From an uncultured Verrucomicrobiota bacterium (GTDB taxonomy: Bacteria > Verrucomicrobiota > Verrucomicrobiia > Palsa-1439), in contig CAINDI010000003.1 of the NCBI GenBank assembly GCA_903847335.1, positions 1-45,837 of the forward strand: a stretch of 45,837 bases of DNA, read 5' to 3'. A model generated the notes under the pieces. The model was not told the origin of the DNA, did not search any database, and was given only the letters and a program-made list of their open reading frames with translations. Both the position numbers and the translations under genes were made by a program. This document shows positions 15,050 to 19,473 of the stretch, one piece after another (within the stretch, counting starts at the first letter, position 1; every line of letters starts with the position of its first letter).

Positions 15050-15556
15050 TCAACGCAGATTGTACAGGTACAGAAAGGTGGCGTAACCGGAGGGCAAGAA
15101 TTGCGGCGGTTCCGGCAGTTCCTCGGCGTATTTACACGCCATCTCCAGCATGTGTCGCGTATGGAAAAAGGCTTCCACCATCGGGCGCGTGTGCTTCAAC
15201 CAGTTCTTATTGTGCGTCTGCTTAAACCCCTTCCCTGTTCCATCGGCGACGATCTGGCGAAAATACGGGTTTAGTTTCAGATGCGGAGCGAGAGCCTGTA
15301 ACTCCTCCACCATCTTCGATGTCGCAGGCTGCAACCGGTAATACACCTTGCAGGACTGGTGATAGAACCGGTAAATGCCGTCCTCGTATCCCCAGTGACC
15401 CGACACCTCCGCCAGCAGCGCCTTCAACTTCGGCAATCGCCGCTTCGCCCTTTTCAACAAACGCTTTTCCTCTGGCTCAAGCCGCTCGTGGAGCTTGCGA
15501 TATTCATCCATGCTCAACTCAAACTTCTGTGGCTTGGATTTAGCTTTTCTTTTCAT
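15050..15556 (-). CDS. Conserved-looking hypothetical protein
   Basis: A 168-residue soluble protein of unknown function. The N terminus is highly basic (MKRKAKSKPQKFELSMDEYR) and is followed by a charged helix (LEPEEKRLLKRAKRRLPKL) and an aromatic-rich C-terminal half (GIYRFYHQSCKVYYRL, MVEAFFHTRHMLEMACKYA, YATFLYLYNLR). The start overlaps the end of the upstream gene by 17 bp, so the two form a pair. The composition is convincing for a real protein and it feels like a family I have seen as hypothetical in Verrucomicrobiota, but no domain name can be given. Confidence 0.65.
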   Translation of the reverse strand: MKRKAKSKPQKFELSMDEYRKLHERLEPEEKRLLKRAKRRLPKLKALLAEVSGHWGYEDGIYRFYHQSCKVYYRLQPATSKMVEELQALAPHLKLNPYFRQIVADGTGKGFKQTHNKNWLKHTRPMVEAFFHTRHMLEMACKYAEELPEPPQFLPSGYATFLYLYNLR

Positions 15557-17205: not shown

Positions 17206-17508
17206 TTATTTACCTCTGCGCCCTTGCTCCTTGCAGTTTCGGTCGTAAGTCACAATCCAAGAGCCTTCTTGCGTCGTGAACGTGGTGCCAGACGCCGAAC
17301 GAATCGTCTTGTTCGAGTTTCCCATGCGCTTAATTTCTTTGCAACTCTCGTCGTAGGTAACGATCCATGACCCTTCGAGGGCGACGAAGAAGTCGCCGGC
17401 AACGCCCACGACCTGTTTGTTCGATGCGCCCATTCTTTTTTTCTCTTTTCCGTGGTCATCAAAAACGACGATCCAAGATCCTTGCGTGCTTACTTCTGAG
17501 ATTGCCAT
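17206..17508 (-). CDS. Small protein with three 36-residue repeats
   Basis: A 100-residue protein made almost wholly of three tandem units of exactly 36 residues, each starting with GSWIV at residues 10, 46 and 82 and continuing with the pattern (Y/F)D...KE..R.G and SNK; the third unit is cut short at RRGK. The alternation of hydrophobic and polar residues suggests beta-strands, perhaps a small beta-sheet or propeller-like fold. There is no signal peptide, but the repeated Cys and aromatic residues are conserved between units 2 and 3. A good AAGGAA ribosome-binding site lies 7 nt before ATG 17508. The function is unknown. Confidence 0.7.
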   Translation of the reverse strand: MAISEVSTQGSWIVVFDDHGKEKKRMGASNKQVVGVAGDFFVALEGSWIVTYDESCKEIKRMGNSNKTIRSASGTTFTTQEGSWIVTYDRNCKEQGRRGK

Positions 17509-17613: not shown

Positions 17614-18189
17614 TCACTCCATTTCCGGGGAGCAGCGTTTCGGCTCCATGCCCGACTTCCGCAACAACTCACGCGGCGTGTTGGCGTTCACATGTTTCAT
17701 CATTGCCAGTAGCACTCGTCCAGCGGCTTCGGCATCGGCTTGGGCATGGTGGTGGTTGAACGCATGGCCGATGTGCGCCGCCAGCGTCTTGAGCTTGTGG
17801 TCAGGCAGGTCCGGCCAGATGCGCTCGGCGACGCGATACGTGCAGAGATAATCAAACTCCGGACAGGCCAGACCGAAATGATTCAGGGTGGCGCGCAGGT
17901 GTCCGATGTCGAAGGCTGCGTTGTGCGCGATCACGATGTCGGCGCGCGTCAGCCGTTCCAAGAATGCTGGCGCAATGGCCGGAAATTCCGGGGCATCCAG
18001 AAAATCCAAGTGGGTCAAGCCGTGACATTCAATGAAGTCATCGTGAAACCATCCGTGCGGTTTTGGTGGCCGCACCAACCAATAAGGAGCCTCCGTCAGT
18101 TCGCCATCCTCAAACACGGCAACGCCGGCGGCGCAGATGCTCACACGCGATGGATTGGCCGTCTCAAAATCTATGCTGGTGATAATCAT
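17614..18189 (-). CDS. DnaQ-like 3'-5' exonuclease (DEDDh)
   Basis: A 191-residue DEDDh exonuclease domain with all five catalytic positions visible: Asp-Glu in SIDFETA, Asp in HNAAFDIGHL, and His/Asp in HHHAQADAEA near residue 165; a middle segment CTYRVAERIWPDLPDHKL is typical of the RNase T/ExoX/DnaQ epsilon group. Because it is a stand-alone domain it could act on ssDNA, tails or RNA. I start it at ATG 18189 with AAGG about 8 nt upstream; a longer form from ATG 18249 would overlap the AAA gene and lacks conserved sequence. It directly follows the AAA+ ATPase gene by 22 bp, probably one operon. Confidence 0.88.
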   Translation of the reverse strand: MIITSIDFETANPSRVSICAAGVAVFEDGELTEAPYWLVRPPKPHGWFHDDFIECHGLTHLDFLDAPEFPAIAPAFLERLTRADIVIAHNAAFDIGHLRATLNHFGLACPEFDYLCTYRVAERIWPDLPDHKLKTLAAHIGHAFNHHHAQADAEAAGRVLLAMMKHVNANTPRELLRKSGMEPKRCSPEME

Positions 18190-18211
18190 GGCACGCCTTG
18201 GGTCATCGGCA

Positions 18212-19378
18212 TCAGGCCTCAAACCCGATGTGCGGGCGGTTAGTTTCATGTTTGTCCTGTCCGATAAAGACTTCCGCAAGGGAATAATCGCTGGCCACTG
18301 GCAATTTCCTGCCGAGACTTTCGGCAAGGCGGGCGGCTTGGACGTAGTCGAGCCTGCGGAAGACTCGGTGGCAAAGCAGGCGACCGGGGCGGAGGAGCGC
18401 CGGATCGATGTCAGCGGCAGTGCAGTTGATCGTGCAGATGATCTGGAGGTGGAGGAAATCGCCGAGCAGACCATCGGAGAGGTTCAGGATCGCGCTGACC
18501 TGTTCACGATTGTCGGCACCGCGCGTCATCAGAGCCGCATCGGAATCCTCGAGGATGACGACGAGTTTTCGGTCGGAAAATCGGTGGCGCTGATCCGCCC
18601 AGAAGCCAATGAATTCAGGCTTTGAAAGAATGCCCATGGTCGAGGTCGGGATGAAGTAGAAGCGATGCGACTCCTTGAGCGCACCCGTGAGGTGGCGCAA
18701 GTAACAGGTTTTACCGGTTCCCGGAGTGCCTTCAAAGATCGACAGGCCGCGATCTTTCTCGTGGAGTTTCCCGATAAAATCCCGATGCCATTCCCCGCTG
18801 CCACGACCGTAGTGGAGGTTGAGTGCTTCCGGGCTGAGGACTGTGTCGGACGACAACGAGACTGCGTGGCACGTGATGTCGCAGCGGTCTTGCTGAATCA
18901 GATGGAAAGTCCCGCCGGCTGGCGCGGGTGGCTTCAAATATACCCTGCTGAACCGTGTCACAAGCCGCTCCGCTTCAGTCGGCGTCGAAGCGAAGCCCAC
19001 GATCCGATCCTTATCGGCGTAGAGAAAGGCCCGGGGTCCGAATTGAAAGGTGAGATCATCCCATTCCATCGAGGTGTCTTTGGCGTCTTTAGAAGGAAGC
19101 TTGCGGATGGATCGGAACAGGGCATCGGGATTCTCCGAGACCATCCGATCTAGGTCCCATGAACCATTTAACCTGCATACATGCAACCGATCCCCGCCAA
19201 AAGCAGCCAATACCGGAACATGCGGCGTCCGATAATCCTCGCAAAAGGCTGTGGCTCCGGACAGGTTGCAGAGCAGACTTACTGGAGAATCAGCTTTCCC
19301 TTGTCCGTGGATTGCCGTCTCGGACACTTGCACGGATTCGGTAGTGACAGTATTTAGAGATTCAGGTGCGTTGAACAT
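18212..19378 (-). CDS. AAA+ ATPase with unknown N-terminal domain
   Basis: A 388-residue protein. The first about 190 residues form an unrecognised domain; the C-terminal part is an AAA+ module with Walker A EGTPGTGKT, Walker B KLVVILEDSD, sensor-1 IICTIN and the arginine-finger-like ALLRPGRL. The module resembles classical FtsH/Bcs1-type AAA cores, with a DEDSD variation instead of DEID. No membrane segment or protease domain is seen. It lies 22 bp upstream of the DEDDh exonuclease gene, suggesting ATP-dependent loading or remodelling of a nucleic-acid substrate for that nuclease, which is inference. No clear ribosome-binding site precedes ATG 19378. Confidence 0.85.
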   Translation of the reverse strand: MFNAPESLNTVTTESVQVSETAIHGQGKADSPVSLLCNLSGATAFCEDYRTPHVPVLAAFGGDRLHVCRLNGSWDLDRMVSENPDALFRSIRKLPSKDAKDTSMEWDDLTFQFGPRAFLYADKDRIVGFASTPTEAERLVTRFSRVYLKPPAPAGGTFHLIQQDRCDITCHAVSLSSDTVLSPEALNLHYGRGSGEWHRDFIGKLHEKDRGLSIFEGTPGTGKTCYLRHLTGALKESHRFYFIPTSTMGILSKPEFIGFWADQRHRFSDRKLVVILEDSDAALMTRGADNREQVSAILNLSDGLLGDFLHLQIICTINCTAADIDPALLRPGRLLCHRVFRRLDYVQAARLAESLGRKLPVASDYSLAEVFIGQDKHETNRPHIGFEA

Positions 19379-19473
19379 AAAGTGTTGCTTTGTTGTTCAC
19401 AGGGTGCACCTTTCTTATCTGCGAATCAAAGGAACAGAATGTCCCCAAAGATTGTCCGGATGGAGAAGGATGT

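What the first reader, a model, noticed from the sequence alone, without database searches (positions are those of the whole stretch)
17614..19378. AAA+ ATPase paired with a stand-alone DEDDh exonuclease: candidate undescribed defence module
The two genes are 22 bp apart, same strand, with a PD-(D/E)XK nuclease and a repeat protein just downstream. The AAA protein has a large unknown N-terminal domain and no protease or helicase signature; the exonuclease is a lone catalytic domain. ATPase plus nuclease pairing is a common defence design, yet I do not match this one to a named system.
Basis: inference. Interest (0 to 1): 0.5.

Follow-up and report, generated by a model that had tools for sequence, protein, structure and literature searches.

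The report
Shared cargo of a Verrucomicrobial island
The two genes are real neighbours, but they look like interchangeable passengers of a recurring bacterial genomic island that often carries anti-virus genes, marked by an undescribed upstream protein and a short conserved DNA sequence, rather than a dedicated two-gene defence system.

Summary
Observation confirmed: AAA+ gene 18212-19378(-), 22 bp upstream of a DEDDh exonuclease, 17614-18189(-). The reading as a new two-gene defence module is only partly supported. Among 13 fetched loci with a close AAA relative, the exonuclease follows in 7 (5 intact, 2 remnants); of 10 intact exonuclease loci, 5 have the AAA. In 384 genomes of the class the two co-occur in 2 (p=0.08; 0.35 without the query genome). 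Between UP343 and the cargo lies a conserved 25-bp element (19432-19456): 9 sites in 8 of 384 genomes, all 8 with UP343, none for the reversed control pattern. Neighbours include strong matches to restriction and defence-candidate models (84 PADLOC families in 100 neighbours, 3 in 100 controls). The AAA is BCS1/YjoB-like with a conserved C-terminal [I/L/V/M]GF tail; distant relatives occur in jumbo phages without this exonuclease. Most likely: an island operon behind a shared element, in which a BCS1-like protein remodeller and assorted nucleases are separate defence cargo. Function is inferred, not shown.

The parts
18212..19378 (-). AAA+ ATPase, 388 aa, BCS1/YjoB-like, C-terminal IGF tail
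17614..18189 (-). Stand-alone DEDDh (DnaQ-type) exonuclease, 191 aa
19558..20514 (-). UP343: conserved unknown protein (318 aa from ATG 20514; the ORF runs to GTG 20586), hub of the island
   Evidence: (no family hit)
19432..19456 (-). Conserved DNA element GACAnnnnTTGGGGACATTCnnTTC between UP343 and the first cargo gene
17206..17508 (-). Small repeat protein (100 aa); a 44% relative directly follows the AAA in L156
16066..17160 (-). PD-(D/E)XK-type protein, 364 aa
15540..15947 (-). 135-aa protein of unknown function
15050..15556 (-). 168-aa protein; relatives near the exonuclease in L017, L200 and L217

Best explanation
The pair belongs to a recurring island seen in Verrucomicrobial genomes. 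UP343 usually comes first. A conserved 25-bp element stands in front of the first cargo gene, and variable cargo follows. The AAA protein is most likely a BCS1/YjoB-like ring ATPase that pulls on or remodels proteins (inferred from fold and sequence), with its conserved C-terminal [I/L/V/M]GF tail as a docking or inter-subunit element (inferred). The exonuclease is a free-standing DEDDh enzyme that trims 3' ends of DNA or RNA (from its family and intact catalytic residues). I think the island is a regulated defence operon: a regulator, perhaps UP343 itself, acts at the element to switch on separate anti-phage cargo genes. AAA and exonuclease are two such items kept together by island structure, not two halves of one machine. 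Shown: gene order, association with UP343 and the element, defence-type neighbours, conserved residues. Inferred: regulation, anti-phage activity, substrates.
For: UP343 in 20 of 384 class genomes, AAA in 32, exonuclease in 6. Overlaps: UP343-AAA 9, p=5.5e-6; UP343-exonuclease 5 of 6, p=1.3e-6; AAA-exonuclease 2, p=0.08. Element: 9 sites in 8 of 384 genomes, reversed control 0; all 8 carry UP343 (p=1e-11; the motif was derived from such loci, so only its absence elsewhere is independent). In the 14 loci with the full element it precedes the AAA in 10 and other genes in 4. The three genes are absent beside the PMI-FtsK gene pair in 6 relatives of the family. Neighbours: GmrSD-type HEC-06 (L017, L158), PDC-S26 2.5e-84 (L217), PDC-S11 (L155), a type II restriction model 3e-15 (L019), DUF2779 with a weak Cas4 hit (L158); 84 PADLOC families among 100 neighbours, 3 among 100 controls. 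Top Foldseek hits: BCS1 and YjoB.
Against: No experiment. PADLOC counts are families, not members: related models inflate the 84, and PD-T4-6 models contribute; up to 5 control members matched too (3 mad2, 1 mad3, 1 PDC-M72A). Three of the ten neighbours picked for one search had no PADLOC hit (one in L018, one in L019, the ExbB-like one in L160). In the 9 genomes with both UP343 and AAA they share a contig as intact genes in 5; in the 5 with UP343 and exonuclease, in 3 (places). The Fisher tests ignore shared ancestry. UP343 has no known domain and its model is poor (pLDDT 60), so its role is a guess from position. VIA-align scores of BCS1, proteasome ATPases and TRIP13 are tied (Z 13-15), and the top BCS1/YjoB Foldseek TM-scores are low (0.40 or less). 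Three of 13 close AAA loci (L020, L170, L202) have neither UP343 nor element in the fetched stretch. The island could serve another function.
Confidence: 0.55

Rival explanations
1. AAA and exonuclease form a true two-component defence system in the loci where they are adjacent: the ATPase senses or remodels a phage component and licenses the exonuclease to destroy nucleic acid.
For: Same strand and order in 7 of 13 close AAA loci, almost abutting in the window (22 bp) and L019; ATPase plus nuclease is a common defence layout (recalled).
Against: Two of the 7 exonucleases are truncated to remnants (L015, L016) while the AAA stays open; another gene lies between in L016 and L200, and unassigned gaps of about 0.45 and 0.85 kb in L018 and L017; 5 of 10 intact exonucleases lack the AAA; genome-level association p=0.08, or 0.35 without the query genome.
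Confidence: 0.17
2. The island is a mobile or decaying element and its genes serve element maintenance (replication, repair, segregation) rather than defence. The AAA and exonuclease would be replication-type helpers alongside stand-alone DnaB, DnaA and FtsK pieces.
For: Stand-alone DnaB N-domain (L155), DnaB C-domain (L159), DnaA ATPase domain, FtsK motor and MotA/ExbB (L160) in the same islands; up to 5 UP343 copies per genome, some interrupted or at contig ends; by eye, a resolvase-like ORF beside the distant AAA in L004 and an integrase-like one in L005.
Against: No recombinase among the 9 window proteins scanned; no strong second copy of the element in the 14 loci (one weak partial hit in L158, E=0.15, and some stretches end inside the cargo); neighbours match restriction and defence-candidate models.
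Confidence: 0.2
3. UP343 plus the 25-bp element is an acquisition module: the element is an insertion site at which new cargo is placed, and UP343 is the recombinase or a targeting factor.
For: L155 and L156 share the leader for about 48 bases past the element, with few differences, and then carry different genes; cargo varies behind a constant front.
Against: The element stays with the cargo gene when UP343 is 0.5-1.5 kb away (L159, L160, L161), elsewhere and inverted (L018) or not in the stretch (L200); one strong copy per locus (two degenerate copies in L168); UP343 hits no recombinase family.
Confidence: 0.06

Closest known systems
BCS1 / YjoB AAA proteins, including the BCS1 orthologues reported in jumbo phages (PMC7824862, passages read)
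   Same: AAA core; best Foldseek hits; BCS1 among sequence hits, though Afg2 and Cdc48 score higher; relatives in jumbo phages
   Different: No transmembrane helix (highest 19-residue hydropathy in the N-terminal part 0.69); residues 1-126 unassigned; C-terminal GF tail; lies in a bacterial island
DnaQ-type DEDDh exonucleases (PRK06195, PDC-S48, CRISPR-associated DEDDh)
   Same: All five catalytic residues; NCBIfam PRK06195 E=1.2e-40, below its cut-off; PADLOC DEDDh 8.5e-25 and PDC-S48 1.3e-23
   Different: Catalytic domain only, 191 aa; no CRISPR gene among the window neighbours scanned
Island-borne diDNases of the DEDD superfamily (PMC11706625, start of abstract and passages read)
   Same: DEDD nucleases in genomic islands near defence genes
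   Different: Described in Actinomycetes and Clostridia as dinucleotide-specific; no sequence comparison made here
WYL-regulator-linked defence islands (PMC9122601, search listing only)
   Same: A regulator-like gene linked to diverse defence cargo
   Different: UP343 has no recognised domain; WYL-like genes in L016 and L202 were judged by eye

Membership tests
AAA (PF00004) | Pfam match above cut-off | tested here: met
   29.4 bits vs 21.2; 27 of 27 aligned sequences, this one included, match at E<=0.01
AAA (PF00004) | Walker A, Walker B and arginine residues | tested here: met
   G217, P219-T224, E277, D278, R330, R333 invariant in 27 sequences
BCS1 family | BCS1-type region in front of the AAA domain | tested here: inconclusive
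   BCS1/YjoB are top by Foldseek but VIA Z is tied with other AAA proteins; no BCS1-specific Pfam hit at E<=0.1
BCS1 family | N-terminal transmembrane helix (mitochondrial BCS1; recalled) | tested here: not met
   Hydropathy maximum 0.69 in the first 150 residues
DEDDh exonuclease | Five catalytic residues D, E, D, H, D and the RNase_T family | tested here: met
Any PADLOC-listed two-gene system | Both proteins match the models of one system | tested here: not met
   AAA has no hit better than mad8 E=0.047; exonuclease hits DEDDh and PDC-S48 only (PADLOC of 2023)
Obligate two-gene defence module | Consistent co-occurrence of both genes | tested here: not met
   7 of 13 close AAA loci and 5 of 10 intact exonuclease loci are linked; 2 shared of 384 genomes
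Defence-island cargo | Neighbours enriched in defence genes | tested here: met
   84 PADLOC families in 100 neighbours vs 3 in 100 controls; families, not members, and antisense ORFs were removed from the neighbours only, so the size of the effect is approximate
Defence-island cargo | Protects against phage | not testable with these tools
   needs an experiment

The most novel reading that the evidence does not exclude
UP343 and its 25-bp element define a previously undescribed class of Verrucomicrobial defence island: a dedicated regulator-operator (or loading) unit that drives exchangeable anti-phage cargo, including a BCS1-like remodeller and stand-alone copies of replisome domains (DnaB N, DnaB C, DnaA ATPase, DnaQ-type exonuclease) that could act as decoys or sensors of phage takeover of replication.
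Probability: 0.2. Interest if true: 0.75.

Novelty: new variant of a known kind. Interest (0 to 1): 0.42.

Why it matters
A constant upstream gene and a near-unique 25-bp element give a handle to find such islands by sequence, and to test whether one regulator controls exchangeable defence cargo in Verrucomicrobiota. The conserved C-terminal GF tail gives a testable feature of an AAA family shared with jumbo phages.

Tried and rejected
Obligate AAA-exonuclease pair: rejected as the main reading. PADLOC, Pfam, NCBIfam and PHROGs gave no named system. The UP343 structure model was too poor to search with. UP343 was not found in viral contigs (28 pattern matches, none confirmed). Structured-RNA reading of the element: RNAalifold found a 6-pair hairpin with no pair changed on both sides, so I treat it as a DNA site. 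Short repeats as insertion marks in the window: only matches of 16-28 nt. Papers: none of the listings describes this pair; UP343 and the element have no name to search by, and most subscription journals are not held. Passages were read in PMC7824862, PMC11706625 and PMC10853773; all others were seen only as listings.

Weak AAA hits in the ATPase core only (L006-L011 and L021-L043) and fragments (L012-L014) were not counted as close relatives. L168's two degenerate copies of the element are outside the 14. Of 127 listed neighbours I gave 100, leaving out mainly short or antisense-looking ORFs; of 103 controls I gave 100 without that filter, which favours the neighbours. The bacterial tail count includes both L020 and L201 and two short ORFs, L206 and L215. 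The viral tail count kept 54 of 61 loci, 51 distinct. In the phylum sample the AAA was found in only 6 of 288 genomes at E<=1e-10.

Full report
Observation. The exonuclease's likely start is ATG 18189, 22 bp after the AAA stop; relatives align from that residue. Catalytic residues D7, E9, D94, H147 and D152 are present and invariant in nine aligned sequences, the window's included. The downstream repeat protein and PD-(D/E)XK-like protein are also there.

Where the genes occur. I fetched loci by several searches and took stretches around them. Thirteen loci carry an AAA at 52% identity or more: window, L015, L016, L017, L018, L019, L020, L156, L158, L163, L170, L200, L202. In 7 the exonuclease lies downstream on the same strand: intact in window, L017, L018, L019 and L200, and as 5' remnants in L015 and L016. 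UP343 is in the same stretch in 9 of the 13, and the DNA element in 10. Ten loci carry an intact exonuclease (window, L017, L018, L019, L155, L160, L161, L200, L216, L217). Five of them have the AAA and 7 have UP343. These loci are not a random sample.

Unbiased sample. In the same 384 genomes of the class, UP343 was found in 20 (E<=1e-5), the AAA in 32 (E<=1e-15) and the exonuclease in 6 (E<=1e-35). Overlaps: UP343 with AAA 9, expected 1.7, p=5.5e-6; UP343 with exonuclease 5, expected 0.3, p=1.3e-6; AAA with exonuclease 2, expected 0.5, p=0.08. Against only the 8 close AAA genomes the last gives p=0.005. Without the query genome AAA-exonuclease falls to 1 (p=0.35; close set p=0.09), and the UP343 overlaps stay significant (3e-5 and 2e-5). 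The tests ignore shared ancestry. The genes share a contig as intact genes in 5 of the 9 UP343-AAA genomes and 3 of the 5 UP343-exonuclease genomes (places); some of the rest may be contig breaks. UP343 is thus the hub; the AAA and the exonuclease are linked mainly through it.

The DNA element. Between UP343 and the first cargo gene lies GACAnnnnTTGGGGACATTCnnTTC. One site was found in the window's genome, 2 mismatches allowed. In the 384 genomes, one mismatch allowed, there are 9 sites in 8 genomes and none for the reversed control pattern. All 8 genomes carry UP343 and the 9 sites fall in the loci described. In 14 loci it stands before the AAA in 10, before a stand-alone DnaB N-domain in L155, a DnaB C-domain in L159, and an unknown small ORF in L160 and L161. 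It stays with the cargo gene when UP343 is 0.5-1.5 kb away (L159, L160, L161), elsewhere and inverted (L018), or not in the stretch (L200). L155 and L156 share the leader about 48 bases past the element and then carry different genes. An RNA hairpin is possible but shows no compensating changes. I read it as a promoter or operator; an insertion site is less likely because no strong second copy was found (a weak partial hit in L158 has E=0.15).

Setting. Six relatives with the neighbouring PMI-FtsK gene pair on a long enough stretch have no UP343, AAA or exonuclease match there. In 4 of the 6 the same type of gene (by eye, a carboxypeptidase) lies next to PMI, directly or after one small ORF. 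So the island is an insertion or replacement. Named neighbours in related loci: GmrSD-type HEC-06 proteins (L017, L158), PDC-S26 2.5e-84 (L217), PDC-S11 (L155), a type II restriction model 3e-15 (L019, McrB-like by eye), DUF2779 with a weak Cas4 hit (L158), and a UDG hit just at its cut-off (L016). Three of the ten proteins had no hit. Of 100 neighbours and 100 control genes, PADLOC at E<=1e-10 matched 84 and 3 families respectively. Matching members were not counted for the neighbours, redundant models inflate that figure, and antisense ORFs were removed from the neighbours only.

The AAA protein. A profile of 27 sequences finds Afg2, Cdc48 and, lower, BCS1 in the PDB. The model (27-sequence alignment, mean pLDDT 69) is good for the AAA core and poor for residues 1-126. 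Foldseek ranks BCS1 and B. subtilis YjoB first, with TM-scores of 0.40 or less; VIA-align ties BCS1, YjoB, TRIP13 and proteasome ATPases. There is no transmembrane helix by hydropathy. A [ILVMF]GF motif lies in the last 14 residues in 35 of 38 bacterial rows (one locus can give several rows) and 43 of 51 distinct viral relatives, against 11 of 1434 windows elsewhere in the viral proteins. G385 and F386 are invariant in the 27-sequence alignment. In three jumbo-phage stretches and one Bernardetia plasmid stretch no exonuclease is annotated beside it, though most phage neighbours are hypothetical, and no exonuclease or UP343 match lies in the 61 viral loci. A paper on jumbo phages already reports BCS1 orthologues there (PMC7824862, passages).

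Reading. The window holds one copy of a recurring UP343-element-cargo island. The AAA is probably a protein remodeller and the exonuclease a nuclease. The most likely role is defence by separate cargo under shared control. The two-gene machine remains possible for the adjacent cases but is not favoured. Nothing here shows anti-phage activity.

Noticed in passing
L155:8971-9441, L159:6397-7332, L160:4314-5033, L160:2656-3582, L160:3582-4283: Stand-alone pieces of housekeeping machines in UP343 islands: DnaB N-domain, DnaB C-domain, DnaA ATPase domain, FtsK motor, MotA/ExbB.
   Followed up: partly
L207:7985-13230 and L202:8108-10509: Three divergent AAA paralogues within about 5.3 kb in one genome and two side by side in another.
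   Followed up: no
L168:9162-13604: Broken AAA fragments, each after one of two paralogous genes (282 and 331 aa), with degenerate copies of the element nearby.
   Followed up: no
window:18212-19378, C-terminus: Conserved [I/L/V/M]GF tail across bacterial and viral relatives.
   Followed up: partly
L015:7196-7264 and L016:4246-4401: Exonuclease remnants truncated at different points and followed closely by unrelated genes, suggesting rapid cargo turnover.
   Followed up: partly
window:15050-15556: 168-aa unknown protein, 83% identical to one about 90 bp after the exonuclease in L217, and with a relative between AAA and exonuclease in L200.
   Followed up: partly
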